A stretch of DNA of 64,000 nt, from NCBI GenBank assembly GCA_030148025.1, contig JASBUG010000029.1, positions 1-64,000 of the forward strand, written 5' to 3'. A model generated the notes under the pieces. The model made no database searches. It was not told where the DNA came from and saw nothing but the letters and a program-made list of their open reading frames with translations. Made by a program: the position numbers and the translations under genes. Below, one piece after another: positions 30,601-47,251 of the stretch (its first letter is position 1; every line of letters begins with the position of its first letter). This stretch comes from Flavobacteriaceae bacterium (lineage in GTDB: Bacteria > Bacteroidota > Bacteroidia > Flavobacteriales > Flavobacteriaceae).

Positions 30601-32147
30601 CTTACATTTACGATGCTACAGGTGTGAAGCTTAAAAAAGTAGTTAGCACTGGGGTAACAACAGAGTATGCAGGCAATTATGTATACGAAAACGGTTCTTT
30701 GAAATTCTTTAACCACCCTGAAGGGTATATAGATGCTAGTGGTAGTGCATATGAATATGTATACCAATACAAAGACCATTTAGGGAATGTACGTTTGAGT
30801 TATAAAGATCCTAATGGGAACTATCAGCAAATTATTGATAGCGATTTTGAAAGCGATATGGACGGATGGATTCATAACATTAATACCACCTCTAATTTTG
30901 AAAATGGACGTTTAAAAGTAAATGTAGATGGTTCTTGGGAAGGGATCCGCCACGAAACACCAACACTAACAGTGGCGCCAGGAGAAGTGTATACCGCTAA
31001 AATAGTCTTTGATAAAGGGAATACACAATCTATCGTTAGGTTTTACGTACAGGAGTTTGATTCTAACGGAAATCATTTAGGCTATACCGGATTAAACTAT
31101 AATATAGCGACAGGAACAGGGTCTTATAGCTACACCGTTGGAAGTAATGTTTCTAAAATCCATTTAAGATTAGACAAAGACAATACTAACACTGGTACGC
31201 AAACTTATTTCTATGTAGATCATATAAGTTTTACAAGAGGAGCTCTTGAAATCCAGGAAGAAAACAACTACTATCCTTTTGGCTTAAAACATAAAGGGTA
31301 TAATGGGAATGTTAATTCTACTAACTTAGCACTCAAAAGAAAATTTGGAGGAAAAGAGTATCAGGATGAGCTTGGTTTAGGTTGGTATGATATTACAGCT
31401 AGAAACTATGACCCAGCTCTTGGTAGATGGATGAATTTAGACCCTCTAGCTGAGGAAATGAGAAGACATAGTCCATATAATTATGCCTTTGATAATCCAA
31501 TATTCTTTCAAGATCCTGATGGAATGAAGCCTTGCCCAACAGGTGATTGTGATGATGATATTATAAAAAAAGGAAAAGAAGCTGGCACAAAAATAATTAA
31601 TTCATTTATGAATTTTGTAAGTTCATTAACAGGGTTTGATGATAATCCAATGCCTTCAAATAAGAATAGTAATACTCAAAAGGATGAAGAAGATGGTCAA
31701 AATAAAAAAGTTGATGCTGTAGTAGATTTAGTTGATACTGTAAAAGAAAATGCAGCACCTGCTGCTAAAGGATTAACTTACATGGCTGCTACTGAAGTAA
31801 AAGAAACTGCAGAAACAGTTTCTGATGTAGCTAATGCTACTACGGTTGCTACAGGAGGGGCTAGCTTGCCAATTACGGGACCAGTAGCTAAACTTGCGGA
31901 TGGTGTAGCATCTACTGCAACGACTGTTCAAGGTACTATCCATGCAATGGAAGGCAATATTGATGAAGCTGCAAGTTTGGGAAAAGAAGCTTTAGTTAGC
32001 GCTCTTACAACATCAGCAGTTAAAAAAACAATGAAGCAGACTAAAAAATATAGTAAATTAACAAAAAAGCAAGAAGCAGTTCAATCAAAAGGATTAACTT
32101 TGTTTATGAATGTTATGACTAGTATATTTCTTACACCACATTTCTAA
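27696..32147 (+). CDS. RHS-core protein with variable C-terminal tip (putative polymorphic toxin)
   Basis: A 1483-residue exported protein with a signal peptide (about 1-21). The N-terminal region (about 25-65, VETISYYDGLGRPEQ) resembles DUF6443. A lectin-like insertion follows at about residues 75-270. YD repeats fill much of 280-1040, and a second jelly-roll/CBM-like insertion lies at about 1048-1183. The RHS-associated core follows (NNYYPFGLKHKGYN near 1189 to NPIFFQDPDGM near 1275). Residues after 1275 form a tip rich in Ala/Val and hydrophobic segments, ending in a Lys-rich stretch. In RHS systems such tips are toxins released from the shell; no known toxin motif is recognised here. Small membrane-protein genes follow within a few bases. 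Confidence 0.82.
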   Translation: MKTILYTIILMFFVTFTVAAQTTTKNYVKTTTYQVGSSTGSVANNEKVETISYYDGLGRPEQSRVKHGGGSSLSHNVIDWKNNWVLGTGTIPFFNNNGSPEENNRILGVNPHGDSAMLWECVNDSGNNGDGGWNTDYISVDNTKSYRYTVWVKRTGSNNGTTYHGTQNVNNLDGTANSNPYFWTGDLPQLNQWYLLVGVIHSSGYTGNYSGVSGVYDINGNKVISGTEFKWANTTTTSRFRSYLYYATDTSVRQYFYNPIVQILDGNESSILDIIDEKYGNDIVTPVVYDRFGRQPKQYLPYADSGTSNLNYTATSGLLTTIENYYKNNFPDDIDAINPNPFSESVYDDSPLNRVKQQGAPGEDWAIGNGHEIQFEYGTNTNEVKLFDVSLSFADDTYTPTLSLNGTYAANTLTKTITKNENWTSGNNNTIHEYKNKAGQVVLKRNYANVGGVPTPHDTYYVYDDYGNLTYVLPPKMNASTVAISTINSQLNDLGYQYKYDSRNRLVEKKIPGKGWENIVYNKLDQPIMTQDANLNAQNMWLFTKYDQFGRVAYTGEMSLNISRTSLQSTVDGVSSNYVTRVDPSITIDATTIYYTNTAYPTANITDIHTINYYDSYVDLPSGLGSTATTYYGLSSSTDTKSLPTVSKTRVLGTSNWITAVNYYDAKGQPIYVYSKNDYLSTTDIVESKYNFTGQPTEIKTRHTKAGVTITTLEKFYYDHGGRLIKQTHKINSNPEEVIVENHYDALGQLIYKEVGNTSANPLQTVDYKYNIRGWLKQINNPVNLGNDLFGFKINYNTHDHGGTKLYNGNIAETVWKTGNTDNSLKWYKYSYDALNRISSATDNTNRYNLSNITYDKNGNILSLTRKGHIVDNPISTNSSHFGTMDILTYHYDGGSNRLRKVIDAAAVDKYGFKDDAVNTASDSTNDYYYDDNGNMLSDTNKGVGVSSHISYNHLNLPTNVPVGSENISYIYDATGVKLKKVVSTGVTTEYAGNYVYENGSLKFFNHPEGYIDASGSAYEYVYQYKDHLGNVRLSYKDPNGNYQQIIDSDFESDMDGWIHNINTTSNFENGRLKVNVDGSWEGIRHETPTLTVAPGEVYTAKIVFDKGNTQSIVRFYVQEFDSNGNHLGYTGLNYNIATGTGSYSYTVGSNVSKIHLRLDKDNTNTGTQTYFYVDHISFTRGALEIQEENNYYPFGLKHKGYNGNVNSTNLALKRKFGGKEYQDELGLGWYDITARNYDPALGRWMNLDPLAEEMRRHSPYNYAFDNPIFFQDPDGMKPCPTGDCDDDIIKKGKEAGTKIINSFMNFVSSLTGFDDNPMPSNKNSNTQKDEEDGQNKKVDAVVDLVDTVKENAAPAAKGLTYMAATEVKETAETVSDVANATTVATGGASLPITGPVAKLADGVASTATTVQGTIHAMEGNIDEAASLGKEALVSALTTSAVKKTMKQTKKYSKLTKKQEAVQSKGLTLFMNVMTSIFLTPHF
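31260..31304 (+). repeat. RHS-core repeat, copy 1
   Basis: 45 nt encoding the core segment ENNYYPFGLKHKGYN. It recurs at 45084-45128 in the same orientation with a single mismatch (31277 versus 45101). It marks the upstream homology shared by both tip cassettes. Confidence 0.9.
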
Positions 32148-32150
32148 TTT

Positions 32151-32372
32151 ATGAAAGAAAGAATCGGAGAATTTCTTCAAGCAAATCCAGTTATGGCTGG
32201 TTTAATATTTATAATTATAGGCCTTATTTTTCTCCTATTTAGGTTAGGCAAGAATAATTCTTTTAAAATGAAAGACCATAGATATATATCATGGAGGCTA
32301 TTAGTTAAAACATGGGGTGTTATTGTTATGTTTATCCTGATGGGTTTGATTATAATTATTAATAATATTTAA
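32151..32372 (+). CDS. Small membrane protein behind the RHS tip, candidate immunity component
   Basis: A 73-residue protein with two hydrophobic segments (about residues 15-30 and 55-71). It starts 3 nt after the RHS stop and is followed 1 nt later by another membrane protein. No family is recognised. Its position directly behind a variable RHS tip is where the cognate immunity gene is expected. A membrane-located immunity protein would fit a toxin acting on the membrane, but that is inference. Confidence 0.6.
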   Translation: MKERIGEFLQANPVMAGLIFIIIGLIFLLFRLGKNNSFKMKDHRYISWRLLVKTWGVIVMFILMGLIIIINNI

Positions 32373-32373
32373 T

Positions 32374-32754
32374 ATGAAAAGTAGAGTTTATTTTGAGAAC
32401 AAGAATTTTAGAGTTTTTCTAATAAGCTATTTGTTATTGTTGATCCTTTATAATGGATATAACGTTGTTTTTAACTTTCCAAATGGATGGTCTCCAGCTA
32501 TTATAAACATGGTGATTTTAATTTTAGTAATGGCTAAAAGTAAATACTTGAAAAACATATTAAGAATTTGGAGTGGAATTTTTTTAGTGTTTTTCCCATT
32601 AATGCAAGTGATATCTTCATTATTTAAATTCTTTCTTGATGGTGAAGCTTTTTATGGAGTAAGCTTCTTAATGGCATTATTTTTTATAATTGTTGGTGTA
32701 ATTATTTTTACGATGTCAAAAACAGTGAAGAATATAAAAAACAACTCCAATTAG
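32374..32754 (+). CDS. Polytopic membrane protein, candidate RHS immunity protein
   Basis: A 126-residue protein with four predicted membrane segments (about 12-28, 42-57, 64-82, 93-113) and short loops; family not recognised. It is the last gene of the first tip cassette. Its TAG stop (32752-32754) lies at the very edge of the 3' repeat shared with the orphan cassette, which supports its being part of the exchangeable tip-immunity unit. Confidence 0.6.
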   Translation: MKSRVYFENKNFRVFLISYLLLLILYNGYNVVFNFPNGWSPAIINMVILILVMAKSKYLKNILRIWSGIFLVFFPLMQVISSLFKFFLDGEAFYGVSFLMALFFIIVGVIIFTMSKTVKNIKNNSN

Positions 32755-32958
32755 TGGATGACATTTTAAGATGTTTTAACTAATTAAATAATAAAAGCAG
32801 GTATATTTAGGTATATCTGCTTTGTTTTATAATGGAAGACATTAAACAAGAATATAGAGTACAAATAACCATGTATGCTGGTCATAAGATTAGTTTAGGT
32901 GATGATACCTATGTAGAATTAAAATTTAACTACAAAGATGTATATATGTTACTATGGG
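32749..32958 (+). repeat. Cassette 3' repeat, copy 1 (about 210 nt)
   Basis: Homologous to 47051-47251 in the same orientation. Of this, 81 nt are identical (32817-32897 and 47115-47195). It starts in the stop codon region of the immunity gene and runs through a terminator-like hairpin into the first 42 codons of the next gene. Confidence 0.9.
32793..32828 (+). terminator. Terminator-like hairpin in the cassette repeat
   Basis: AAAAGCAG and CTGCTTT close a stem that continues through TATA/TATA around TTTAGG, followed by GTTTT. It lies after the immunity gene stop and before the next start, so it probably ends the RHS cassette transcript. The same structure is at 47091-47126. Confidence 0.6.
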
Positions 32959-33149
32959 AATTAGATATCATCGTAGGTAATCAAAAAACATTAAGTAGTA
33001 CTAAACCAACTCATGCTATTGTAAAATGTAGATTACCAATTGAAGAAACAGGGAAAGTAAATTTAGGAGATAAGTTTAGTATAATAGACCATGATTATCC
33101 TAAGAAAATTGGTAAAGGACATATTATTGAGATTGTGAAGCAAGAGTGA
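32832..33149 (+). CDS. Conserved cassette-flanking protein, EF-Tu C-terminal-like
   Basis: A 105-residue cytoplasmic protein without signal peptide or membrane segment. The arrangement KPTHAIVKCRLPIEETGKVNLGD, then a short gap, then KKIGKGHIIEI is reminiscent of the third domain of translation factor EF-Tu, where a similar beta-barrel ends in G-x-T-V-G-x-G. The similarity is judged by eye and weak. A truncated, frameshifted copy lies at 47130-47251 behind the orphan tip, so the gene is part of the flanking homology rather than cassette-specific. Confidence 0.55.
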   Translation: MEDIKQEYRVQITMYAGHKISLGDDTYVELKFNYKDVYMLLWELDIIVGNQKTLSSTKPTHAIVKCRLPIEETGKVNLGDKFSIIDHDYPKKIGKGHIIEIVKQE

Positions 33150-33227
33150 GTGTTATTTAGATTTGTTTACTTTATATTAATAGTAAATGGTTTTTGAAAT
33201 GGTGAGAACGAGAGTGTCAAAATACAT

Positions 33228-33372
33228 AAAAACATGTTTTAGTTTTTTGATATAGTTTCGTGAACTTTCATCAGTTTTAAGAAACACTGAAATTTCACAT
33301 TATGTGAACTTTTGCCATCATTAATGTGAATTATTACGCATTTAATACACATTATTTGTATTAATGATGCTA
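33228..33372. repeat. Cluster of palindromes at the left island edge
   Basis: Within 145 nt there are AAAACATGTTTT near 33228, TTTCACATTATGTGAA near 33293, CATCATTAAT (33316-33325) facing ATTAATGATG (33360-33369), and TTAATACA facing TGTATTAA (33342-33364). There is no gene here. Such density suggests protein-binding or recombination sites, but this is not proven. Confidence 0.45.
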
Positions 33373-33383
33373 ATAATTTAGAA

Positions 33384-33599
33384 TCAGATTTTTTTTATAT
33401 CTACAGGTAATACTTGTAAACTGTCAATGTCACAATCAAAATTCATTAAAACCTTAATTAAGTTTCGTGTATTTTGAATTAGTTTTTTGAACACATTAGG
33501 TTTTTTTAAAAAAGGGAATAGAATTACAAACAACATTCCTAGCACGAAAGAAACTCCGTCTGAAAGAAGATTGATAAGGATGTCTTTTAGTAACTCCAT
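33384..33599 (-). CDS. Small predicted membrane protein
   Basis: A 71-residue protein with one strong hydrophobic segment (about residues 14-30, GVSFVLGMLFVILFPFL) followed by a basic region and an acidic tail. No homologue is recognised. It is the only sizeable reading frame in this 800-nt stretch. CATATTTG (minus strand, 33605-33612) is close to a -7 box and would give an almost leaderless mRNA. It may be real or may be chance. Confidence 0.4.
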   Translation of the reverse strand: MELLKDILINLLSDGVSFVLGMLFVILFPFLKKPNVFKKLIQNTRNLIKVLMNFDCDIDSLQVLPVDIKKI

Positions 33600-33990
33600 C
33601 TATTTCAAATATGTAAAAATTACACCTGTTTATTAATTTGACCTAATATATTTATTCGACTATTTTACTAAACTTACAGTAAGAGAAAACGTCAAAAACC
33701 CGATTAAAAAGTGTACAATTTCGTATACTACAAAGTTTGCTTTTTTGAGAATGATTTGCATATACAAGTACAAACAAAATTATAATAATGAACGCAAATG
33801 TTAATTGAAAAAATCACCATAAAAGTAAGATGCAATATCAAATATAGTAAAAAAATAAATTTTAAAGAAGTATAAAAAAATAAATTAATTAGATGTAAAT
33901 TGTTAATTTGCAGGCATATAGAGCATTTCTTTCAATTTAAGTTATTTTATTATATTTGAATCTCCTTAAGAGTTATTTTATAATAACTAT
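33600..33990. other. Gene-free AT-rich stretch with a promoter for the membrane-protein pair
   Basis: No coding frame is seen. TATATTTG at 33951-33958 matches the TAnnTTTG -7 box on the plus strand, 33 nt before the next ATG. The rest is low-complexity A/T sequence. Confidence 0.45.
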
Positions 33991-34362
33991 ATGTCAAGAA
34001 ATGAAAAGAGCCGGAAAAGGAATAATTCCTTTCGACCTAACATGTGGGGTTTTTTAAGAGATGTTATAATTGCTGCCTTAGATAAAGGCCAATTACCCGT
34101 GATGTTTATAGGATTGTACATTCTAATATTTTTTCTCAAATTTCCAAGTGATCAATTAAAACCATTTTTCTTTGATATAATAAATCACGACAATTTCGTT
34201 AATATACTAGGTTGGTTTGGTTTTGTATCAGTTAGTATCGTTAGTTTTTACATAAATAGACGACAAAGAAGGTTACACAATATTGAGATGTCAAGGGTTA
34301 CTGAAGAAAAAAGAATTTTACATGAACAATTAATTAAAAGAAAATTGCCAACCAGTACTTAA
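33991..34362 (+). CDS. Unrecognised membrane protein, first of a pair
   Basis: A 123-residue protein: a strongly basic N-terminus (SRNEKSRKRNN), two hydrophobic segments (about 36-50 and 72-88), then a basic, coiled-coil-like C-terminal tail. The topology suggests both termini in the cytoplasm. It is followed 2 nt later by another membrane protein, so the two are translationally linked. A TAnnTTTG box lies 33 nt upstream. No family or function is recognised. Confidence 0.65.
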   Translation: MSRNEKSRKRNNSFRPNMWGFLRDVIIAALDKGQLPVMFIGLYILIFFLKFPSDQLKPFFFDIINHDNFVNILGWFGFVSVSIVSFYINRRQRRLHNIEMSRVTEEKRILHEQLIKRKLPTST

Positions 34363-34364
34363 TT

Positions 34365-34928
34365 ATGAAAACTTTAATATTTCTATTCTTATTTTTCGGA
34401 CTTTATCATTTTATTTATGAAAGTGTTATAGCTCCGTCGTTGCGTCTAACTCTTAGATATAATTATTTTGCTTTAAGAGATAAGTTGAGAAACCTTGAAA
34501 TTAATGGTGAAGTAGATGGAAAAGATCTTGAACTTATTGAATTACTTGATAAATCTATTTGTAATATAATTAATAATATATCATACATTAGTTTTGGGAG
34601 TTATTATACAATTTATCATAGATTGGTACGAGATAGTAATAAATTTAAAACTTTTTCTGAAAGAAAGAAAATGATGATTGAAGGTGCTCAGAATGCTGAA
34701 TTAAAAGGAGTTGCTAAGGAAATGAGTAATCTTTCTTTAAAAGCATTATTTATTAATAATGGAGCTTGGTTTATTTATTTAATAATTCCTGCAATTATTG
34801 TGGTTGTAATTGCTTATATATCTATGCAGATGGGTAAATTAATTGATCATTTTAGGATAATTAGTGATAGGTTATTTTATAGTTCTAATTTAAGAAATGG
34901 AAATAATTTTCCTGCTAGGACAGCATAA
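34365..34928 (+). CDS. Unrecognised membrane protein, second of a pair
   Basis: A 187-residue protein with an N-terminal hydrophobic segment (about 3-18), a soluble middle part of about 110 residues with charged helices (RDKLRNLEINGEVDGKDLELIELL), and a second membrane segment (about 133-154). It probably works with the 123-residue protein encoded 2 nt upstream. A clear terminator follows. The function is unknown; it may be cargo of the island. Confidence 0.65.
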   Translation: MKTLIFLFLFFGLYHFIYESVIAPSLRLTLRYNYFALRDKLRNLEINGEVDGKDLELIELLDKSICNIINNISYISFGSYYTIYHRLVRDSNKFKTFSERKKMMIEGAQNAELKGVAKEMSNLSLKALFINNGAWFIYLIIPAIIVVVIAYISMQMGKLIDHFRIISDRLFYSSNLRNGNNFPARTA

Positions 34929-34980
34929 GTCAATAATGTCTTAAATTAGACATAATACATTAAATTTAAATTATTGAGAA

Positions 34981-35011
34981 AACAGCAACTGTTACATTTG
35001 CTGTTTTTTTT
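34981..35011 (+). terminator. Terminator of the membrane-protein pair
   Basis: AACAGCAA (34981-34988) pairs with TTGCTGTT (34998-35005), followed by an uninterrupted T-run. It separates the pair from the next gene. Confidence 0.8.
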
Positions 35012-35056
35012 ATTCTAACTTTTGAACTGTCAATTTTATATTTTCTATTTTTAAAT

Positions 35057-35941: not shown

Positions 35942-35998
35942 ATGCTTTCAAGTCAGTACCAACAGACCTTCTCAATTTCAGTTATCGTAACAAAATAA

Positions 35999-36850
35999 TT
36001 ACATCGGATGAAACTTAATTACACTATTCTTCAGGTGTTGTAAGTCTTTTGACAAGTAAGATTCAGTACTACTAATGTATTTGTGTCCCGCATAGTATTG
36101 TACGGTTCTTAGATCATGTGTTTTCAACCAATTTTTAATCACAGATGTTCTTATCAAGCGAAGATTAGGTTGATACGGCAGTTTTGGCAGTTTCTTGTTG
36201 AGTTGATTGAGAATACTTCGTGTACTGTTTTTGTTTTTAGAAGTTACAATTAACGCTTGTTCCTTGGAGTTACTAACCATTTCGTTTCTAGTAACTGTCA
36301 AGTACTTACTTAATAGTAGAACCTGTTTAATATCCAAAGGCAATACCCTTTTATTACTATTGTTACTTTGTTTGATTGTCAATGTCAGTTTATCGAGATT
36401 AATATCTTCAACATAAATATTCTTGACTTCGTGAGATTGTATTCCTTGAAAAATGAATAATCCCAACAGTACTTTATCTCTTATCTCGATATTAGACGTA
36501 TTCGGATAACTATCGTATATGTGATGTAATTGTTCACGTGAAAGTGTTTTGGAACTAATAAGTGTTGGTTGTCTTTTGATATGAAGTTTGACTGGATTGT
36601 ATTGTACATTTCTATAGTTGAAGTAATGACGTAAAGCTACCAAATGAAGATTGACCGATGTGTCGTTATTGTTACGTCTTAGATATTTGATATACGTTAA
36701 TATCTCTTTATAGTCTATAGAGAAATCTTCGCTTTCTTCGCATTCGGCTATATCTTTATACGTAAGAAACTTTGTTGCCAAATAACAATATGTAGTTACT
36801 GTACTTTCAGTAAAGTGTTTCTGTTGTAGATATGATTTAAAACCACTCAT
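35999..36850 (-). CDS. Tyrosine-recombinase homologue with degenerate active site
   Basis: A 283-residue protein with the two-domain layout of XerC/D-type recombinases: an N-terminal SAM-like core-binding domain (about 1-95) and a catalytic-domain fold. The active site is incomplete. The first Arg is replaced (GIQSHEV, Gln138), and the His of HxxR is Arg231 (LRLIRTS), while Arg234, His256 (AGHKYIS) and Tyr265 remain. Its start overlaps the stop of the intact recombinase by 4 nt. It is probably a structural or regulatory partner in a hetero-complex, or it is decaying. The first reading is favoured because the frame is intact. Confidence 0.85.
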   Translation of the reverse strand: MSGFKSYLQQKHFTESTVTTYCYLATKFLTYKDIAECEESEDFSIDYKEILTYIKYLRRNNNDTSVNLHLVALRHYFNYRNVQYNPVKLHIKRQPTLISSKTLSREQLHHIYDSYPNTSNIEIRDKVLLGLFIFQGIQSHEVKNIYVEDINLDKLTLTIKQSNNSNKRVLPLDIKQVLLLSKYLTVTRNEMVSNSKEQALIVTSKNKNSTRSILNQLNKKLPKLPYQPNLRLIRTSVIKNWLKTHDLRTVQYYAGHKYISSTESYLSKDLQHLKNSVIKFHPM

Positions 36851-37716
36851 AATTTATCTACGATATGGGTATATATCTGTGTTGATTCTAAAGAACTATG
36901 ACCGAGAAACTCACTAATATCATAGATTGACATTTGTTGTTGTAAAAAATGAGTTGCAATACTGTGTCGTAATGTATGAAGTCCGACTTTGTCTGTTATT
37001 CCAGCTCGTTTACAAAGTGTATTCAATCTCAACTGTAGTGCTTGTGCTTTTACTTTCTCACCCTTGTAACTGATAAGAAGTGTATTTCTGAATTTGTGTT
37101 TACGATTGAGTCGTCGTCTTCCAATGTTAATGTATTCTCTAAGATATTGATGTGTGCTTTGAGTAAACGGAACATAGCGTTGTTTGCCTCCTTTACCCTT
37201 TCTAACAAATAATACATTGTTATCAAAATCAATATCACTTAACTGTACATGTAGTGCTTCACTACGTCTAAGTCCACAACTGTAATACAACGATAACATT
37301 GCTTTATCTCTATAGCCTAGTTTGGTATTATCACATACTTCAAACAATTGTTTGACTTGATTTATTGTTAAGATGTTCTTTTCAGGAGTATCAACTTTTA
37401 GATAAGTTAGATGTTCTGTGTTGAGATCAATATTGTTTACTTGAAACAAGAACTTACTAAAACGTTTTAATGAAATGATGTAACCGTTGATATGGGAATG
37501 ACTCAGTTTGTTTTGTGTTCTTACACTGGTAGTGTTTCTCAAATGATCTACAAACAACAACACATCATCTTTAGATAACTGTTTGATAGGTTTATCACAG
37601 TATTCCAAGAAGTGAGTAATCATATTTGGAGAATTATAACATACAATATGACTATATCCAATGGTAATTAGATACTGTGTAAACTCTTTGATGATATTGT
37701 TATAATGACTGTCCAA
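36847..37716 (-). CDS. Tyrosine recombinase/integrase
   Basis: A 289-residue site-specific recombinase. The core-binding domain covers about residues 1-105. The catalytic domain has the full set: Arg150 (SCGLRRSEA), a Lys in RKGKGGKQR (about 172-180), His247-x-x-Arg250 (LHTLRHS), His273 (FLGHSS) and nucleophile Tyr282. It overlaps the gene of the degenerate homologue by 4 nt, so the two are coupled. It lies 55 nt downstream of a serine recombinase on the same strand. It probably integrates, excises or rearranges the island. Confidence 0.92.
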   Translation of the reverse strand: MDSHYNNIIKEFTQYLITIGYSHIVCYNSPNMITHFLEYCDKPIKQLSKDDVLLFVDHLRNTTSVRTQNKLSHSHINGYIISLKRFSKFLFQVNNIDLNTEHLTYLKVDTPEKNILTINQVKQLFEVCDNTKLGYRDKAMLSLYYSCGLRRSEALHVQLSDIDFDNNVLFVRKGKGGKQRYVPFTQSTHQYLREYINIGRRRLNRKHKFRNTLLISYKGEKVKAQALQLRLNTLCKRAGITDKVGLHTLRHSIATHFLQQQMSIYDISEFLGHSSLESTQIYTHIVDKL

Positions 37717-37771: not shown

Positions 37772-38326
37772 CTATGCGACATTTCGGTTTTTCACAGGAG
37801 GATTATTTGGACTGGATTTCATACGAATACTTCTTAGTAAATATCCAGTTTTACTTCTTGACGATTTGTCTTTGCTTCCTCTTGGACGACCAAGTGTTTT
37901 TCCTTGTTTTTTTGCTCTAGCTAATCCCTCTAGTGTTCTTTGGCGAATAAACTCTCTTTCTAATTCAGCAAAAGCACTTAGAATTGTAAAGTATAGTTTC
38001 CCTGTTGGAGATGTGAAGTCAATGTTTTCTTTGTAGCTGTAAAATTCAATACCCTTATTTACCAGTTCGTTGATTTCTAAAATTAGTTCTGTACAACTTC
38101 TAGCCCAACGATCTAACTTATAAACTAACAGTCCGTCATACTTCTTTTTTCGAAGATCATTTAACAGTTGTTTTTTGATTGGTCTTGTCTTACGAGTGGA
38201 TTTAACTTCTTCAAATACAACAAATTTAAAACCCATTGATGTTGCAAAACGTTCTAAGGCTAGGACCTGATTAAGAGTTGTTTGTTGTGTAGTACTTACA
38301 CGGGTGTAGATTGCGATTGTTTTCAT
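37772..38326 (-). CDS. Small serine recombinase (resolvase/invertase type)
   Basis: A 184-residue protein with an N-terminal catalytic domain: the nucleophile Ser11 lies in YTRVSTTQQ, and KLDRWARS and the long dimerisation helix (FAELEREFIRQRTLEGLARAK) are present. The C-terminal DNA-binding part is short, with GRPRGS and basic residues. The ATG at 38326 is chosen because the family starts at the first strand (MKTIAIYTRVS); an upstream ATG at 38353 would only add nine unsupported residues. It may resolve replication co-integrates or invert DNA. Confidence 0.88.
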   Translation of the reverse strand: MKTIAIYTRVSTTQQTTLNQVLALERFATSMGFKFVVFEEVKSTRKTRPIKKQLLNDLRKKKYDGLLVYKLDRWARSCTELILEINELVNKGIEFYSYKENIDFTSPTGKLYFTILSAFAELEREFIRQRTLEGLARAKKQGKTLGRPRGSKDKSSRSKTGYLLRSIRMKSSPNNPPVKNRNVA

Positions 38327-38424
38327 GTTACGATTATTTTTGGTAACCGTCATGATTAAATCGACAGGAGAGTACTCAAAAAGATAATTATTAGTTATTT
38401 CACATCATTACATATGTGCTATAA

Positions 38425-38531: not shown

Positions 38532-40877
38532 TTAATTTAATGACTGTGTGTTAGCCGTTTCAATAAATGATACGTAATGAACATTATTGCTGTATCTGAA
38601 TTCGGTTTTATATTTAAAAGCCTGTCCGTACAACTTTAACCAGCTATTAAACTTAAAAGCTGTGAACCACTTATGATCCTTGATGTGAGGATATTCAGCC
38701 TCAAACTTTTGTTTGATCTTCTTCACTGGATATTCCTTACCGTTCTTCTCTAGCAGGTCTAGCTTCTTACTAAAATAAGAGAATTCTTTTCCAGCTTTTT
38801 GACGAAGTTTTCTTCTTGGAATGTTTTTAACAACAGGTTTTATAATTCCTGTTCCTAAAAAGTGTTGAATACAACTAGTCATAAATAAATCAAAGTATAT
38901 CCATTGTTCATCGGACCAGTCATCAAAAAGTGTTTTCTGGAATTCGTCAAATGGCGTATGATCTTTGTTATAATGTTGCGAAAATTCTATCTCAACTTTA
39001 CGACGATCGAATGAATTACCTTCACCCTCAATTACATAATTAGTAGTAATTAAAACTTTAGGAGAATCTTGATATTTAAGATACATTGTATCTCTCTGCT
39101 TCTTTTCCACCGTTGCGCCTTCAGTAATTACACTAAAAAGGCTTTTGAAGTCAAACGCCATCTTCACATCATCAAACGATAATATTTTAGTATCTAAATC
39201 TACTTGCTGAAAAGCAAAGTTTTTATTAAAACTAAAATTCTTACCATCTATTACAGTCATTTTTTTGTATTTACTCAAGGCAGACATTACTAACCCCTTG
39301 CAAGTTCCCCCTTCTGGATTGTCAGAAATCTGCTCGTCACAAAAGATAATCGCTTTTGCATTCTTCGGGTCTTTGTAATCATGGAGTAAATAACCTAAAA
39401 TAGTTCTCATGCTTTCATATCTAGAGAAATCTGGATTATTCTCTTTATCTCCAGTCACACCTCTTACCAATTGAGAGAAATCACCTTTAGTGATAAAATC
39501 CATCAGTTGCACTTTTGTTGGATTGTACTCACGATCAATTATTGATGATTCCCAAATCAAATCCTCCACTTCATTATAATCGATTAGCTCTTTATCTAAC
39601 TTCGTTATTTTCAGCACTCCATTTTTGAAGAATTTATAACAAGTGTCCGAAGTGTCTTGTACGAACTTGCGATTCAATTTTAAAAATGTGTTCAACTGAT
39701 TTTCAGAAGTAAGATGATTCAGCTTGTTGTGGAATTTCTCCAACAGATCAAACTTTGTGCACTGGTCTCCAATATCGTAATCGAGATTGCGAATGAAATT
39801 CATCGTAAAATCGATGATATCCTCTTTCTTAACGATCGAAACAATATTGTTTTGAACCCTTACCAAGATTCGGCTACCGTTATACAGATAACCCCAAAAG
39901 CCATTTCGATTTAAGAAAGTATAGTACATATTGGTAAGTATCGATACTTTACCTTCATAACTATACCAAAACTGATAATTGGTTTTTGAAATTGAAATGC
40001 CTTTAACTGGTTTTGGGTTTTCTAAACCATAGATTAAACCATTTTCAATGGTTTTAACTGCATTGTTAACGTTTTCAATTTCGTCCTTTCTCTGTTGAAC
40101 AGCATTAAAAAGAGCATTGTAACTGCTCGTATAATCCAACAACTTAGCATTAATGAAATATCCTAAGTGTGTCGCCTGATTTAAAAGTACGTTGTGCTTT
40201 TCTCCATTCTTACACTCTAAGAACTTTTTGACTGCGTTCGCTAAAGCTTTTTTACCAACTTCATTGTCAGCTTCAATTTGTTCACTCTCAATTATTAGCC
40301 CTTGATTTTGTATTTCTGTATTCTTAATAGGAAAATACTTTTCTACAAAGTCAAAATCGAGAGTGTTGCTTTCAATGTTATAGTACGCAGATGCGTCGTA
40401 ACTTAAGAAACATCCTCTACTAATATCCTTGCAAGCTTTATCAATTTCAATTTTCAAGTCGCTAAAATGCTTTTGTAAAGCTTTGAAGTAACGGAGATGT
40501 TCTTCCTCGTTAGTAGCATTAATTTTAATAATGACTTTTAAGCCTCTTGAAGGCGATACAAACATATAATGTATGTAGTCTTCCTCCTTTAAACGTTCTT
40601 TAAGTTCATTTGCATAAGGAATATCGTCGATATCCAAACAAATAAAACCTGAGTGTTCAACCAACTCAGATTTCTTACGCTTGTCAAATACGCCACTAAA
40701 AGTTACTAGTGGTAAGTCCATCTTTAAACTTTTATCTTTTGTTTTACGATAAAGTTCAATTTTAGACTTTAGCTCATCACCTCGAATTATTTCATCGAGT
40801 ACATCCATACCTATCGTTCTAGACGGTGTTGTGTTTTTCAAATTGTCAAAGAACGAATACTCAAAATTAAATTCCAT
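38532..40877 (-). CDS. VirE-N/primase-like and SF3 helicase replication protein
   Basis: A 781-residue protein. The N-terminal domain (about 1-180) matches the BT4734/VirE-N type, a relative of archaeo-eukaryotic primases: FICLDIDD (Asp82, Asp84), VSPSRGLKVIIKI and KDISRGCFLSYD. The C-terminal half is a superfamily 3 helicase: Walker A-like DNPEGGTCKG (519-528), Walker B ILSFDD (565-570) and sensor VLITTNY (608-614). The combination is typical of replication proteins of plasmids, phages and integrative elements. It probably starts replication of the island after excision. Phased TGTCAA repeats lie about 100 nt upstream. Confidence 0.82.
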   Translation of the reverse strand: MEFNFEYSFFDNLKNTTPSRTIGMDVLDEIIRGDELKSKIELYRKTKDKSLKMDLPLVTFSGVFDKRKKSELVEHSGFICLDIDDIPYANELKERLKEEDYIHYMFVSPSRGLKVIIKINATNEEEHLRYFKALQKHFSDLKIEIDKACKDISRGCFLSYDASAYYNIESNTLDFDFVEKYFPIKNTEIQNQGLIIESEQIEADNEVGKKALANAVKKFLECKNGEKHNVLLNQATHLGYFINAKLLDYTSSYNALFNAVQQRKDEIENVNNAVKTIENGLIYGLENPKPVKGISISKTNYQFWYSYEGKVSILTNMYYTFLNRNGFWGYLYNGSRILVRVQNNIVSIVKKEDIIDFTMNFIRNLDYDIGDQCTKFDLLEKFHNKLNHLTSENQLNTFLKLNRKFVQDTSDTCYKFFKNGVLKITKLDKELIDYNEVEDLIWESSIIDREYNPTKVQLMDFITKGDFSQLVRGVTGDKENNPDFSRYESMRTILGYLLHDYKDPKNAKAIIFCDEQISDNPEGGTCKGLVMSALSKYKKMTVIDGKNFSFNKNFAFQQVDLDTKILSFDDVKMAFDFKSLFSVITEGATVEKKQRDTMYLKYQDSPKVLITTNYVIEGEGNSFDRRKVEIEFSQHYNKDHTPFDEFQKTLFDDWSDEQWIYFDLFMTSCIQHFLGTGIIKPVVKNIPRRKLRQKAGKEFSYFSKKLDLLEKNGKEYPVKKIKQKFEAEYPHIKDHKWFTAFKFNSWLKLYGQAFKYKTEFRYSNNVHYVSFIETANTQSLN

Positions 40878-41805: not shown

Positions 41806-41983
41806 TCTCCAAAAATACAGTTAAAGTTTCTATTTTACTATTGGAATAGAAAAATACAAAAATGTTGAATCTTAGTAAAATTGCGATACTTATTAGTTAT
41901 AGTGTTTCGGTATATTATTGCTACTTTTACTCTAACAAAACGAAGAGAATTATAAGAATATAATTAAATAAAAATATTAGATA

Positions 41984-42145
41984 AGCGTTAGCTGTTATTC
42001 TGTCTGAAAAAATCGCCAATTAAGTATAGACTACATAATAACAAGTTTCTAATGCTCACGCATGGGCGTGGGTTAGTACTTGTATGTAGTCGGGTGTTTG
42101 GCGATACCTTTCAGTCAGCAAGGTTTGAAACCCCACGCTTTTTTA
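41984..42145 (+). ncRNA. Long structured inverted repeat with attenuator-like alternative stem
   Basis: A nested imperfect hairpin spans 42000-42118: outer arms 42000-42019 with 42098-42118, a perfect 8-bp stem GACTACAT/ATGTAGTC (42029-42036 with 42084-42091), ACAAGT/ACTTGT, CTAA/TTAG, and an apical CTCACGC/GCGTGGG stem with loop ATGG. GCGTGGG (42066-42072) can instead pair with CCCACGC (42132-42138), which is followed by TTTTTT. This resembles a terminator/antiterminator choice ahead of the gene at 42188. It could also be a folded DNA recombination site. The family is not recognised. The remainder of the 382-nt gap shows no gene. Confidence 0.55.
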
Positions 42146-42187
42146 ATTTAAATCACTTCACTTAGGGGTTTGAGTGATACCAAAAAA

Positions 42188-43318: not shown

Positions 43319-43371
43319 ATAATTGATCAATTTTAAAATGGTGATAGTTACGATTACAAAACAATCGTACT

Positions 43372-43755
43372 ATGACATCGTTACATAACTTCAGCAATCA
43401 TCTTCAGTCTATTACTAAAGAACAATGGGATAACTTATTTGTACTTGTAGATCAATTACATCATTCTAAAATAAATAACGGTGTTAAATCGATTGAAACA
43501 CATCAATTACTATTTGATGCCATTGAAACAATAATATCGTTAGGACTACTTGTCAAATTTGATTATACAAAGTGTAAGTTAGTAGATCAAGTACTAGAAA
43601 GTAATAACTACAATGATCTAGACACTTTAGATGTATGTAAAATACTAACGGTTATCATTAGAAAGGATAAATTCGTGTTTAATACTATTCAAACCTATTT
43701 TGAAATGGGTGTATGGACTAAACTACTAGAACGTCTAAAATATCTTCATCAATAG
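43372..43755 (+). CDS. Hypothetical protein, DUF6508-like C-terminus
   Basis: A 127-residue soluble, helical protein. The C-terminal pattern CKILTVIIRKDKFVFNTIQ, then G-x-W-T-K-L-L-E-R-L, resembles the DUF6508 signature in which a conserved I-R-x-D-[RK]-F motif precedes a last helix. This is a by-eye match of moderate strength. Such proteins are common on Bacteroidetes mobile elements without a known role. It has its own 5' region of 53 nt after the secreted protein gene. Confidence 0.6.
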   Translation: MTSLHNFSNHLQSITKEQWDNLFVLVDQLHHSKINNGVKSIETHQLLFDAIETIISLGLLVKFDYTKCKLVDQVLESNNYNDLDTLDVCKILTVIIRKDKFVFNTIQTYFEMGVWTKLLERLKYLHQ

Positions 43756-43839
43756 GCTTTTAATTGCTTATTAAAAATAAGATAAATACCTACTTCTATT
43801 ATCAGGTAAAGTTTTATCTTAGATCAATAAATTTATATA

Positions 43840-44229
43840 ATGAATGGACTTAACTTAGATCCTGCAATTTGGGCACTAATTGGTGTTGTTTTAGGAGCAG
43901 TACTAACAGGTATAATAAACTATCGTCTTCAAAAATCTCAGTTTAAGCATAATGAAAAGATGTTCTTTTTACAAAACAAGAGTGACGAGAAAGCAAAAGA
44001 GATTTTAGCAGATTTACTCAATCATAGAGTTTTTACAGACAGATCATTTACAGTAATTAAGCAGCGAGTTGGTGGATTTAGTGATGATGAATTAAGAAAA
44101 CTGTTAATTGCTATTGGAGCTCAAAGGTCTTCATCCCGAAAGGAAGGAGAATGGTGGTATCTATTGGAAAGGCAACAGGAAAGAATTGCTAAAAGAAAAG
44201 CAAAGAGTAAAAAAGACAAATCAATATGA
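43840..44229 (+). CDS. Single-pass membrane protein, first of an overlapping pair
   Basis: A 129-residue protein: one membrane segment near the N-terminus (about 10-28, AIWALIGVVLGAVLTGII), then a charged helical region with QLF-like spacing and a strongly basic C-terminus (RIAKRKAKSKKDKS). It overlaps the next gene by 4 nt (ATGA), implying coupled translation and possibly a complex. The family is not recognised. Confidence 0.65.
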   Translation: MNGLNLDPAIWALIGVVLGAVLTGIINYRLQKSQFKHNEKMFFLQNKSDEKAKEILADLLNHRVFTDRSFTVIKQRVGGFSDDELRKLLIAIGAQRSSSRKEGEWWYLLERQQERIAKRKAKSKKDKSI

Positions 44230-44921
44230 AAGATTTATGGAATTTAATTTTTGGTCCTCAAGGTTTAATACTTCTAGGTGGTATCATAACTCTTATTGGT
44301 GCATTTTGGTCAGCTAATAGAGATCTAAATACTGAACATGAATTAAATGAAAAGAATGAAATTATAATTCAAAAAACAGAAAAGATTTCTGAATTGAATG
44401 ACAAAATTGTTAATGTTTTGACTGGAGGTGATTCGTTTCCTTTTGTTGAATTTGGAATCCCTGATAAAATACACGGAACTCCAGTGTTAAAACTGAATGG
44501 AGATAATGCTATTCAAAATGTTAATGGCAGATTTATTGATGTTAGAGAATTAAGAAAGGAACAAAGAAGAGGAAATTTTATAAATGGGACTGGTATTAAC
44601 TTTACTAAGAATATAGTTTCTCCTGCTTATGTACAACATTTAGTAAATGAACAAGCATATTATGATATTTCAAAAGGAGGCCGCTACATGATACATTATT
44701 ATACTCCTTATAATATATTTACACAATATTTAGCCGTTGAACCGAGAGCTGAAGATGGTTTTCCACTTCAAGCTTATAAAATTTATAAAGGAAAGCAGAA
44801 AGAACTAATTCATACTGAATATCCTGAAAGCTTTCCGATCCCTCTAGATGAGATAGATTTCTTAGAGTCTTTAAGTCAAGAAGAGATTGATGCAATTAGA
44901 GCAAATAAAGAAAAAAATTAA
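44226..44921 (+). CDS. Membrane-anchored hypothetical protein, second of an overlapping pair
   Basis: A 231-residue protein with an N-terminal membrane segment (about 12-28, GLILLGGIITLIGAFWS), a short coiled-coil-like stretch (about 35-62), then a soluble domain of about 150 residues with many aromatic residues (SKGGRYMIHYYTPYNIFTQYLA). It is probably a partner of the 129-residue membrane protein. The function is unknown. It is the last intact gene before the orphan RHS cassette. Confidence 0.65.
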   Translation: MKDLWNLIFGPQGLILLGGIITLIGAFWSANRDLNTEHELNEKNEIIIQKTEKISELNDKIVNVLTGGDSFPFVEFGIPDKIHGTPVLKLNGDNAIQNVNGRFIDVRELRKEQRRGNFINGTGINFTKNIVSPAYVQHLVNEQAYYDISKGGRYMIHYYTPYNIFTQYLAVEPRAEDGFPLQAYKIYKGKQKELIHTEYPESFPIPLDEIDFLESLSQEEIDAIRANKEKN

Positions 44922-45083
44922 GTAGTAAAAATTAGTTATGTGATTCTGTAATTCTTTTGTTGAAAGATAATCACATTAAAACGTTCTTTTACATATATAG
45001 TAAGAATCGAAAGATTTGAAAGAAATAGAAGTAATATCAGTCTTTAGATTTCGATGTAACTTTTTCAGTCCGAAATAGTTCCC

Positions 45084-45128
45084 GAAAACAACTACTATCC
45101 GTTTGGCTTAAAACATAAAGGGTATAAT
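45084..45128 (+). repeat. RHS-core repeat, copy 2
   Basis: Matches 31260-31304 at 44 of 45 positions. It is in frame with the orphan tip. Just upstream the same frame is closed by TAA at 45057-45059, so no full RHS protein precedes it. Confidence 0.9.
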
Positions 45129-45131
45129 AAT

Positions 45132-46058
45132 GTGCCGCTTACTAATCACCCTTATAAGTATAATGGGGTTGAGCTGAATGAGAGTTTAGGGTTGAATTTG
45201 TATGAGATGGATTTTAGACAATATGACCCTGCGATAGCTAGATTTACTAGTATTGACCCTGTGACTCATTGGAGTATGTCTACTTATACGGGATTTGATA
45301 ATAATCCTGTTTATTGGGCAGACCCGAGTGGTGCGGATGGGATTATAAATTGGGGAAATCAAAATGAAGCTGGAGCAATTGAATTAGCAGAACTTGACCA
45401 TAAATACGGAAGTAATCATTCTACGACTAAGAAAAAGAAAGAAAATAAAAAGAAAAACAGTGATGTCATGGATATTGATATCAATAAATTATCTGAAAAC
45501 CTCAATATAGAGTTCGGATTAAATTCATCCTCAAACTTAAGTGTAGGTGAGGCTGTGGTAAATACATACTTGTCTCAAATAATTTTAAAAGTTTATTTAG
45601 ACGCTCTGATTGAGTTATTCATGAGTACATCAGGGCATAAAACAATATCATATATCCCTACAAGCGCTGTTAGATTAAGAACTCAAAGAGTTAGAAATTG
45701 GAGAAAAGCGATGAAGCAAAACAGAAATTATGGATCTATAAGTTTTAGTCACGAGTATAGTGTAAACAGTGTTGCTGAATATTCAACTAGTGGAGATTAT
45801 GGTTATCTCTATAATTCAGGTACAAATGTAGCTACAAATAATATGGGGGCTGATAATCTTGTATATACAAATAGAAACTCTTATGGAGATGGTACCTTTA
45901 GCGGTTATTCATATATTCTTTTTAAGGATAGAGAAAAGAATAAGGTAGGAGAATTATTATTTAGAACTGAAGAGTTAAAAGATAAATTTATTCATTATTT
46001 TAATATAGTTTTAAAAGAAAAATTCAAAAAATCATTGCAAAAAAAAAATGAAAACTAA
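45132..46058 (+). CDS. Orphan RHS core remnant with distinct C-terminal tip
   Basis: Displaced end of an RHS protein. The frame is open from 45060 and encodes the core segments NNYYPFGLKHKGYN, YNGVELNESLGLNLYEMDFR, YDPAIARFTSIDP and NPVYWADPSG, then a tip of about 240 residues unlike the first one (Lys-rich linker, one hydrophobic stretch, a Tyr/Ser-rich end). There is no ATG or clear start; a GTG at 45132 is the first usable codon. It is probably silent until recombined onto the complete RHS gene, or is a relic. The following gene overlaps its stop by one base, as expected for an immunity gene. Confidence 0.75.
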   Translation: MPLTNHPYKYNGVELNESLGLNLYEMDFRQYDPAIARFTSIDPVTHWSMSTYTGFDNNPVYWADPSGADGIINWGNQNEAGAIELAELDHKYGSNHSTTKKKKENKKKNSDVMDIDINKLSENLNIEFGLNSSSNLSVGEAVVNTYLSQIILKVYLDALIELFMSTSGHKTISYIPTSAVRLRTQRVRNWRKAMKQNRNYGSISFSHEYSVNSVAEYSTSGDYGYLYNSGTNVATNNMGADNLVYTNRNSYGDGTFSGYSYILFKDREKNKVGELLFRTEELKDKFIHYFNIVLKEKFKKSLQKKNEN

Positions 46059-47056
46059 TGAAAAAAATATTTATTGTTCTAATAGCTATATTCTTAATGA
46101 ATTGTAATAATCCCAATATTGAGGGTAAATATTATGAAGCAAATGATCAATTAATATTTGAATTTGATAAATCAGAAGTAATTATCTACAATTTAATTGA
46201 TTCAATCAAAGAATCTTATTCAATAAAAATGTTTGATAGTGAAATTGTTTTTATGGATAATGCTAATCAAGAAGTAACAATTGAATATGTTTATGATGAA
46301 AACCAATTGATTCTTTTTGATTATAACCTTAACTTAACTCAAAGTGAGAAAATATTTCTGAAACAATTAAAACATAATAAAAATATAGATATTGATAAAT
46401 TCTATAATAATTATTGGAAAAGTGAAGCAAAGCTTGATACAATTCCTCTTATATTGAAAGTTGTAGATAGTACAAATAAAGGCTTTGAGTACAGAGTGCA
46501 AGCTTCATTGCCTGAAGATATTTTGTTTGACAGCAAAATATATATTGATAAATTTAATTATTTTAACAAGTTTTATGTATATAAATTTCATTCATCATCC
46601 TTTGCCGATACAGATTATTTAGTAGAAAATATTGACTTTGATTCTCTTACTATCATGGATTTAAATTCATGTCGTAGATTTAAATTTTCAAAATATAAAT
46701 CTCAATTAAATGAAAATCTTTTTGGAAATTGGAAATCAACTATAAATAGTAATATAAGAAATGCTTCACGGGCTTATGAAAACCCTAGTTTAGTATTTTT
46801 TGGAGAAAGATTTATAATTAAAAAAAACAATACGATTGAAATTAAACATGGAGCTAATATTAGGGAAGTTGATTTTGATTTAGGTCTAGATTCAAAATAT
46901 ATATTCATAGATGAGCTTGATTTTAGTGAGTTTAAGATTATTGAATCTTCTAGTAATTATTTAATAATTGAGAATCCAATTATTAAAAATGAAAGCGGGA
47001 AGCCGAAGTTAATGAGGTATCTCAAAATTGATAGTTTAGATCACACCACAAATTAG
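46058..47056 (+). CDS. Predicted lipoprotein, candidate immunity to the orphan RHS tip
   Basis: A 332-residue protein with a lipoprotein signal: hydrophobic segment 4-14 followed by a lipobox ending in Cys16 (IFLMNC). The rest is beta-rich with many Lys, Asn and Ile residues and no recognised domain. Its ATG overlaps the orphan tip stop (TAATG), and its TAG stop (47054-47056) lies at the start of the 3' cassette repeat. Placement argues for a periplasmic or surface immunity protein of this tip; the function is inferred from context. Confidence 0.65.
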   Translation: MKKIFIVLIAIFLMNCNNPNIEGKYYEANDQLIFEFDKSEVIIYNLIDSIKESYSIKMFDSEIVFMDNANQEVTIEYVYDENQLILFDYNLNLTQSEKIFLKQLKHNKNIDIDKFYNNYWKSEAKLDTIPLILKVVDSTNKGFEYRVQASLPEDILFDSKIYIDKFNYFNKFYVYKFHSSSFADTDYLVENIDFDSLTIMDLNSCRRFKFSKYKSQLNENLFGNWKSTINSNIRNASRAYENPSLVFFGERFIIKKNNTIEIKHGANIREVDFDLGLDSKYIFIDELDFSEFKIIESSSNYLIIENPIIKNESGKPKLMRYLKIDSLDHTTN

Positions 47057-47090
47057 TGAATGACACTTTTGAGATTTTTAACTAATTAAT

Positions 47091-47126
47091 AAAAGCAGGT
47101 ATATCTAGGTATAACTGCTTTGTTTT
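47091..47126 (+). terminator. Terminator-like hairpin in cassette repeat copy 2
   Basis: AAAAGCAG (47091-47098) and CTGCTTT (47115-47121) close a stem followed by GTTTT, equivalent to the structure at 32793-32828. Confidence 0.55.
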
Positions 47127-47129
47127 ATA

Positions 47130-47251
47130 ATGGAAGACATTAAACAAGAATATAGAGTACAAATAACCATGTATGCTGGTCATAAGATTAGTTTATAATG
47201 CCTATGTAGAATTAAAATTTAACTACAAAGATGAGTATAAGTTACTTTGGG
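47130..47251 (+). pseudogene. Truncated, frameshifted copy of the cassette-flanking gene at 32832
   Basis: The first 22 codons are identical to the intact gene. Then 11 nt of the intact copy are replaced by 6 nt, giving an immediate TAA stop and a frameshift; similarity resumes and ends near 47251. The remaining two-thirds is missing. This is a broken copy left at the edge of the orphan cassette. Confidence 0.85.

What the first reader, a model, noticed from the sequence alone, without database searches (positions are those of the whole stretch)
31260..47251. Two RHS tip-immunity cassettes with matching upstream and downstream homology, one complete and one orphan
The complete RHS gene ends in a core segment, a variable tip, and small membrane-protein genes. 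About 14 kb downstream is a second core segment with a different tip and a lipoprotein gene. Both cassettes begin with the same 45-nt core repeat (31260-31304 and 45084-45128, one mismatch). Both end in the same repeat of 201-210 nt (32749-32958 and 47051-47251), which starts in the stop-codon region of each immunity gene. Orphan tips are established for rhs and CDI loci. What stands out is that both sides of each cassette carry homology, so a double crossover could swap tip and immunity together.
Basis: partly seen in the sequence, partly recalled or inferred. Interest (0 to 1): 0.75.

Follow-up and report, generated by a model that had tools for sequence, protein, structure and literature searches.

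The report
Mobile element that swaps toxin tips
Between the two toxin tips lies a 13.8-kb stretch with two integrase-type genes and a nearly identical 45-base site at both ends, so it has likely inserted itself into the toxin gene, giving it a new tip and a predicted protection gene and pushing the old pair downstream; related elements sit between such toxin-gene pieces in other bacteria.

Summary
The repeats are real, but a two-sided-homology swap is not the best reading. The 45-nt repeats (31260, 45084) look like attL and attR of a 13,824-bp integrative element inside the RHS gene. It carries tip A with putative immunity genes, defence-type genes and two overlapping tyrosine-recombinase genes (35999-37716). 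Tip B with its lipoprotein would be the displaced former end of the gene. Of 37 recombinase or ATPase-gene anchors examined (window included), 16 have RHS cores on both sides, 10 on one side with held sequence ending within 3 kb on the other, 2 on one side only, 9 on neither. Five loci with tandem copies pin the exchange to short stretches of the RHS core: TTTGG (twice), 18 nt holding TTTGG, TACGAG, TATGGATT; the last two are on named complete plasmids. The 2009 RHS paper proposed circular intermediates and knew no integrase co-occurring with Rhs. 3' repeats behind cassettes recur in other genomes, so homologous exchange stays possible. For the window, integration is inferred: no circle or empty site was seen, its recombinases are divergent, and 26 of 30 RHS genomes scored have no element-range rA.

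The parts
24059..27682 (+). RHS-type protein, first ORF (1207 aa)
   Evidence: RHS_repeat PF05593 E 1e-7
27696..32147 (+). RHS-type protein, second ORF (1483 aa), core plus tip A
   Evidence: DUF6443 E 2e-30; core model hit at 31263
31260..31304 (+). attL (inferred): 45-nt core repeat encoding ENNYYPFGLKHKGYN; predicted exchange TTTGG at 31278-31282
   Evidence: exchange position by analogy with G310 and G019
31530..32147 (+). variable tip A of the RHS protein (approximate start)
   Evidence: sequence after the conserved core
32151..32754 (+). two small genes (73 and 126 aa) behind tip A, putative immunity
   Evidence: ORFs; membrane character by inspection only
32741..33149 (+). 3' repeat (32741-32958) with hairpin and complete 105-aa gene (32832-33149)
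33991..34928 (+). two genes matching PADLOC 2TM-TIR and 1TM-TIR models (defence-type cargo)
   Evidence: E 9e-26 and 1e-35; no TIR gene recognised
35999..36850 (-). tyrosine-recombinase-like protein rB
   Evidence: PF00589 E 4e-13; 173 bits to relatives' rB model built without it
36847..37716 (-). tyrosine recombinase rA, residues that I take as catalytic are kept
   Evidence: PF00589 E 2e-43; alignment A5; 215 bits to a model built without it
37772..38353 (-). serine-recombinase-like protein (193 aa)
   Evidence: NCBIfam invertase/Ccr-type matches, all below cut-off
38532..40877 (-). PrimPol / VirE-N-like protein (781 aa)
   Evidence: PF08800 E 2e-23; PrimPol-type models
44981..44989 (+). ACGTTCTTT, right-end motif about 106 nt upstream of the attR core
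45084..45128 (+). attR (inferred): second 45-nt core repeat; RHS homology begins here
45132..46058 (+). displaced tip B (308 aa ORF, GTG start)
   Evidence: homologues
46058..47056 (+). putative immunity B, lipoprotein-like (332 aa)
   Evidence: homologue beside the tip B homologue in L063, 29% identity, E 4e-31
47043..47338 (+). second 3' repeat with truncated 105-aa gene

Best explanation
The 13,824 bp between the two 45-nt repeats is likely an integrative element that its own tyrosine recombinases inserted into the RHS gene at the codons for NNYYPFG, where it would replace the toxin tip and its immunity genes in one step and push the old pair (tip B and its lipoprotein) downstream. Shown: the position of the stretch, the recombinase pair, the repeats at both ends, and the same layout with homologous recombinases in relatives. 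Shown by sequence comparison in five other loci: identical tandem copies whose junctions change partner inside TTTGG (G310, G019), an 18-nt stretch that includes TTTGG (G017), TACGAG (Aureispira) or TATGGATT (Aureibacter), all within conserved RHS core codons. Inferred: that the recombinases catalyse the exchange, that a circle is the intermediate, that tips A and B are toxins, and that the window's element exchanged at TTTGG. Because the element brings its own 3' part of the core, the RHS frame stays open into the new tip. Repeated insertion would build the arrays of orphan tips. Short cassettes without recombinase that carry the same right-end motif (G144), or a GTTCATT variant of it (C17 and C47 of this genome), would be remnants or passengers mobilised in trans. 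The 3' repeats after the immunity genes would be shared backbone left by earlier insertions.
For: Layout: 37 anchors, 16 with RHS cores on both sides, 10 on one side with held sequence ending within 3 kb on the other, 2 on one side only, 9 on neither (cores down to 20 bits counted). 26 of the 37 lie in genomes first brought in by a search with the ATPase-type gene o1 alone (two of them seen only in the fetched surroundings): 8 both sides, 8 one side plus end, 1 one side only, 9 none. Exchange segments from tandem copies; units 100% identical in G019 (7706 nt), G017 (7170) and the 6247 nt compared in G310, and over a whole period in the two plasmids. In 7 of the 16 the left neighbour is an RHS ORF of 1424-2715 aa. 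The eight G095 tips share no similarity, so elements in a row there carry different tips. Right-end motif CGTTCTT within 160 nt of 8 of 9 short-core sites in loci fetched after the motif was noticed and of 12 of 24 in the first set, against 3 of 71 RHS-coded cores. Window rA and rB score 215 and 173 bits against relatives' models built without them; seven Xer-type proteins score 107-133 and 57-75. Tip B and its lipoprotein recur as a pair. Named complete replicons: Aureispira and Aureibacter plasmids.
Against: The window's element differs from the common type: recombinase genes inverted relative to RHS, no o1, identity 35-38% (rA) and 30-36% (rB), rA placed only weakly (65/67) with the mobile set, and no AAAA[CT]GC right end, which 11 of 33 short-core sites have. 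Elements without RHS cores nearby score almost as high or higher (rA up to 189, rB up to 184 bits, G174:C7), so the scores place the window's pair among mobile pairs, not specifically among RHS-inserting ones. The 45-nt sequence occurs in five cores of this genome, so it is not unique to the element's ends. No empty site, circle or read evidence. 26 of 30 RHS-bearing genomes scored had no rA above 153 bits (one of these, G102, has a truncated rA beside an o1, and G092 has an o1 fragment). G291 lacks a right core and G036 a left core over more than 8 kb; 9 anchors have no core, 4 of them with under 3 kb held on either side. G026's right-hand core follows another RHS fragment. Two of six RHS-coded cores in the later set also have CGTTCTT, both in G095. 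rB lacks the usual first catalytic Arg motif (by inspection). The genome is 88% complete in 47 contigs; identical tandem copies in drafts could be assembly effects, and the G019 attR lies on another contig.
Confidence: 0.77

Rival explanations
1. One reading: RecA-type double crossover between the 45-nt core and the 3' repeat swaps tip and immunity together.
For: Both flanks are homologous; 3' stretches outside the core are shared within 15 of 22 genomes; many long-core orphans share hundreds of nt of core.
Against: 45 nt is short for RecA exchange (general knowledge); it does not explain a recombinase element between exactly these repeats, nor the 5-8-bp exchange segments of G310, G019, Aureispira and Aureibacter. 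No joined form of tip B found.
Confidence: 0.12
2. The element is an ordinary hitchhiker that landed between two RHS cassettes; the array arose by homologous C-terminal displacement as proposed in 2009.
For: 26 of 30 RHS genomes scored have no element-range rA; the window element has an unusual gene set; related recombinase pairs also occur without RHS cores; the 45-nt core also occurs elsewhere in the genome.
Against: A homologous recombinase pair sits in the same place in many genera and in other classes, and in the common type the right-hand RHS homology starts at the same codons.
Confidence: 0.1
3. The repeats are only conserved protein motif and shared terminator, with no role in recombination.
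For: NYYPFGL.HKGYN is a widely conserved protein motif.
Against: Within this genome the motif DNA is 91-100% identical while the following 225 nt, compared without gaps, are 28-79%; between genomes the motif DNA averages 75%.
Confidence: 0.05

Closest known systems
RHS C-terminal displacement (Jackson 2009, PMC2935791)
   Same: New tip displaces the old one, leaving orphan tip arrays; circular intermediate proposed.
   Different: [quoted passage not shown] here recombinase genes lie inside the unit and exchange maps to 5-8 bp in four loci.
V. cholerae T6SS effector-immunity displacement arrays (PMC5361080)
   Same: Effector-immunity module inserted, older immunity genes pushed back; likeness to integrons noted.
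   Different: Homology-facilitated illegitimate recombination proposed; no evidence for an integrase (section 13).
rAID orphan immunity arrays of Bacteroidales (PMC12247911)
   Same: Tyrosine recombinase with an interbacterial-competition gene array.
   Different: Described as arrays of orphan immunity genes; the passages seen mention no toxin tips and no insertion into a toxin gene.
Neisseria TpsA/tpsC and MafB silent cassettes (PMC3848433, PMC2935791)
   Same: Silent toxin ends downstream can replace the active 3' end.
   Different: The tpsC abstract names no element or recombinase (outline and abstract only); MafB as described in a passage of Jackson 2009.
Tn554-like elements, integrative elements that enter genes, GMT elements (all from memory)
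   Same: Tyrosine recombinases; insertion at a fixed gene site; GMT said to carry weapon genes.
   Different: Here the insertion supplies a new end of a weapon gene; GmtY model score 26.6 against cut-off 340 for the window's rA. The GMT paper is not held.

Membership tests
RHS polymorphic toxin locus | RHS repeats and core, variable C-terminal tip, small gene behind it | tested here: met
   RHS_repeat and DUF6443; core model hit 143 bits at 31263; ORF order
RHS polymorphic toxin locus | toxic tip neutralised by the neighbour gene | not testable with these tools
   tip B model too uncertain (mean pLDDT 50); no bench data
Tyrosine-recombinase integrative element | tyrosine recombinase with catalytic residues | tested here: met
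   R150, K178, H247, R250, H273, Y282 invariant in A5 (their catalytic role is assigned from memory); PF00589
Tyrosine-recombinase integrative element | direct repeats at both ends at a fixed insertion site | tested here: met
   45-nt repeats; same site in relatives; the 45-nt sequence also occurs in three other cores of the genome
Tyrosine-recombinase integrative element | excised circle or empty site | tested here: inconclusive
   only attP-like tandem junctions in other genomes
Integron | integron-type integrase | tested here: not met
   rA 116.9 bits against cut-off 265 for TIGR02249
Integron | attC sites | not tested
   no attC model run
rAID | recombinase followed by an array of short orphan immunity genes | tested here: not met
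   cassettes here carry RHS core and tip
GMT element | GmtY recombinase | tested here: not met
   26.6 bits against cut-off 340

The most novel reading that the evidence does not exclude
A large, integron-like family of site-specific elements lives by re-arming RHS (and perhaps CDI) weapons: each carries a complete replacement toxin tip with its antidote, enters the weapon gene inside its open reading frame at one of several 5-8-bp sites in the conserved core, and stacks older tips behind it, across several classes of Bacteroidota and into Burkholderiales.
Probability: 0.6. Interest if true: 0.92.

Novelty: new variant of a known kind. Interest (0 to 1): 0.85.

Why it matters
How RHS toxin tips are exchanged has been open since 2009: homologous recombination was proposed and no integrase was known to co-occur. 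A resident recombinase with a defined short exchange site would turn tip displacement into a site-specific reaction that can be tested in a test tube. It would also explain why orphan tips stand in ordered arrays with their immunity genes, how tips cross species irrespective of the RHS context (suggested for Ornithobacterium and Bergeyella in PMC13183296, passages), and it gives a DNA signature for finding such elements.

Tried and rejected
Rejected or set aside. (1) Right-end motif as an rRNA boxA antitermination signal: similar sequences lie before 16S genes in relatives, but here the motif marks element ends, so likeness only; three chance-level matches of the window's right end in the own genome lie elsewhere. 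(2) 3' repeat as an integron attC: it looks like a terminator hairpin followed by a gene start; no attC model was run. (3) Tip B joined to a full RHS: not found. (4) 105-aa gene elsewhere: none confirmed in viral contigs, none outside the own genome among 295 class genomes and 397 family genomes. (5) ATPase-type gene o1 in phages and viral contigs: none confirmed. (6) Tip B structure: too uncertain to use. (7) Tree of rA: window placement weak. (8) 105-aa fold: EF-Tu domain 2/3-like matches, best E 0.011, not significant. (9) Motif counts were repeated, because sites at sequence edges had been counted wrongly. (10) Literature: ten full-text searches listed no paper on recombinase elements that swap RHS tips, judged from titles, abstract starts and the passages that I opened; most subscription papers are not held.
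Full report
OBSERVATION. The two 45-nt core repeats and the two 3' repeats are present at the stated places and are far beyond chance. The genome (47 contigs, 3.37 Mb, 88% complete) has two more cassette loci. C17 holds a second full RHS gene, a tip followed by an ankyrin-type gene, the 3' repeat, and then an orphan core with an HNH-like tip (both named by eye). C47 begins inside the same 130-nt stretch that precedes and starts the C17 orphan core, and carries a third orphan with a lipoprotein-like gene and the complete 105-aa gene. The 45-nt core thus occurs five times. Among these copies the compared 45-nt windows are 91-100% identical, while the next 225 nt, compared without gaps, are 28-79% identical.

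TIP AND IMMUNITY TRAVEL TOGETHER. A scan of genome contigs with a tip-B alignment gave one confirmed locus, L063, a Flavobacteriaceae MAG (JABSPM010000074.1; the window's own genome may be left out of such scans). There a tip-B homologue (39% identity) is followed by a homologue of the window lipoprotein (29%), again as an orphan in an array of three cassettes. Its spacers repeat at 94-98% and run straight into the core. Tip B was found in no full RHS gene: 2 of 397 family genomes had any hit with the tip alone, the own genome and G144; with homologue P0002 at E <= 1e-30, 2 of 296 order genomes had a hit, the own genome and one match confined to the core. The protein search listed 120 of 311 hits, most of them sharing only the core, but it cannot return full-length RHS proteins.

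3' REPEATS ELSEWHERE. With core-coding sequence masked, 15 of 22 genomes that had two or more examined cassettes share a 3' stretch of at least 60 nt behind different cassettes. Within genomes there were 92 matches in 226 zone pairs, between genomes 57 in 5,027. The zones include immunity genes, so some matches are related genes (G040). G017 and G019 are identical tandem copies, and one G165 pair is the same locus counted twice. Two-sided homology is therefore frequent, and exchange by homology remains possible.

WHAT LIES BETWEEN THE REPEATS. The window's interval holds two overlapping tyrosine-recombinase genes (35999-37716), a serine-recombinase-like gene, a PrimPol/VirE-like gene and two genes matching 2TM and 1TM members of a TIR-type defence system. 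In five relatives (G017, G019, G026, G067, G170) the interval between the attached cassette and the next core holds an ATPase-type gene (o1) and a homologous recombinase pair rA-rB. Window rA is 35-38% and rB 30-36% identical to these. With the window left out of the models, window rA scores 215 bits and rB 173, against 107-133 and 57-75 for seven Xer-type proteins. Mobile pairs without RHS cores nearby score up to 189 and 184, so the scores do not by themselves tie the window to the RHS-inserting group. The residues that I take as catalytic are invariant in rA; rB lacks the usual first Arg motif by inspection.

HOW GENERAL. A search of 299 family genomes with o1 alone found 17 genomes and 32 places. 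I fetched the surroundings of these and scored RHS cores. A search with rA in 30 RHS-bearing genomes found element-range scores (over 200 bits) in the own genome, G042, G036 and G055; the other 26 had 112-153 bits, the range of Xer proteins, though G102's is a truncated rA beside an o1 and G092 has an o1 fragment. The surroundings of the G042, G036 and G055 hits were added. In all, 37 anchors: 16 with RHS cores on both sides, 10 on one side with held sequence ending within 3 kb on the other, 2 on one side only with more than 8 kb held on the other (G291, G036), 9 on neither, of which 4 have under 3 kb held on both sides (weak cores down to 20 bits counted, such as 24 bits in G102, 25 in G055 and 30 in G042). 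Among the 26 anchors in genomes first brought in by o1 the figures are 8, 8, 1 and 9. For comparison, 33 of 149 family genomes have a core like the window's at E <= 1e-12. The o1 family has at least 5,493 protein clusters at E <= 1e-50 among the 7,999 scored. Longest-contig lengths shared between and the orphan-RHS list (1,324,667, 484,574 and 58,711) suggest the same linkage there, and 61,262 links a 105-aa homologue to an o1; suggestive only.

WHERE THE EXCHANGE HAPPENS. In G310, G019 and G017 identical tandem copies allow attL, an attP-like junction and attR to be compared (the G019 attR lies on another contig that overlaps by 77 nt). attL and the attP-like junction last differ just before TTTGG, and the attP-like junction and attR first differ just after it, in both G310 and G019; G017 gives AACTACTATCCCTTTGGA, which contains TTTGG. 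The window's single mismatch within the 45 nt is the base just before TTTGG; it is a third codon position, so this is only consistent. Two named, complete plasmids from other classes of Bacteroidota show the same layout with a longer, primase-fused o1: Aureispira sp. CCB-E (period 7,652, exchange TACGAG just before SNHLGN) and Aureibacter tunicatorum pAT2 (period 8,169, exchange TATGGATT at YGF of YRYGFNGKEKD). Related elements thus use at least three sites in the same conserved core. At the right end, CGTTCTT lies within 160 nt of 12 of 24 short-core sites in the first set and of 8 of 9 in loci fetched later, against 3 of 71 RHS-coded cores, two of these three in G095 (which replaces the counts).

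MECHANISM. Committed reading: the element circularises, and rA (with rB) recombines attP with a short core site inside the RHS open reading frame. The gene then ends in the element's own core fragment and tip, with immunity and cargo behind it; the former tip and immunity stand behind attR. Repeats of this build arrays: on G095 contig C54 four anchors stand in a row, and the eight G095 tips show no similarity to one another. Cassettes with a right-end motif but no recombinase (G144; with a GTTCATT variant C17 and C47) would be remnants or passengers. The circle, the catalysis, the toxicity of the tips and the exact base in the window are inferred.

AGAINST. The window's element is atypical and its rA is placed weakly. 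The 45-nt motif is not unique to its ends. Most RHS genomes scored have no resident rA of this range; G165, with large arrays, has none. G026's right-hand core is preceded by another RHS fragment. Draft assemblies can mislead about identical tandem copies; the two plasmids are complete records.

KNOWN WORK. [quoted passage not shown] Kirchberger 2017 (PMC5361080, passages and section 13) saw no evidence for an integrase in Vibrio effector displacement. rAID arrays (PMC12247911, passages) and Neisseria tpsC cassettes (PMC3848433, outline and abstract) are the nearest relatives in behaviour. A Serratia Rhs paper (PMC10539506, passages) attributes exchange to homologous recombination. The ten searches named under Tried and rejected listed no paper on recombinase elements that swap RHS tips.

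Noticed in passing
window 32832-33149: 105-aa protein with only five matches in 5.8 billion proteins (itself included) and an EF-Tu domain 2/3-like predicted fold; the best structural match, not significant, is an EF-Tu of a CdiA/CdiI complex.
   Followed up: partly
window 33991-34928: 2TM-TIR and 1TM-TIR type defence genes on the element; no TIR partner was recognised in the next ORF.
   Followed up: no
window 62343-62410: S15-Flavobacteria ribosomal leader.
   Followed up: no
window 23447-23521: tRNA-Arg just upstream of the RHS operon; a tRNA on the other strand also lies behind the C47 orphan.
   Followed up: no
L171 (Paraburkholderia plasmid NZ_CP155076.1): HTH-toprim-XerC modules beside HYD1-type and HNH-type toxin genes with small neighbours, next to FHA and ShlB genes: a possible CDI counterpart.
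   Followed up: partly
L170 (Caballeronia plasmid NZ_CP049318.1): Weak RHS core hits (36-39 bits) alternate with an o1-type gene and recombinase hits of 140 bits in a betaproteobacterium.
   Followed up: partly
L049 and L063: Some displaced tips begin with an MGCFKI/MGCLKL leader that runs in frame into the core; such leaders are common on small Bacteroidota RHS ORFs (from memory), so element ends may supply new starts.
   Followed up: no
L104 (G073), L101-L103 (G142): Many copies of repeats, mostly about 50-150 nt, behind cassettes and outside the core (whose output was cut).
   Followed up: no
L063 3163-4073: The tip-B homologue's ORF ends at 3969 while the match goes on to 4073; described only.
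   Followed up: no
L063 7038-7217: Group II intron match near the cassette array.
   Followed up: no
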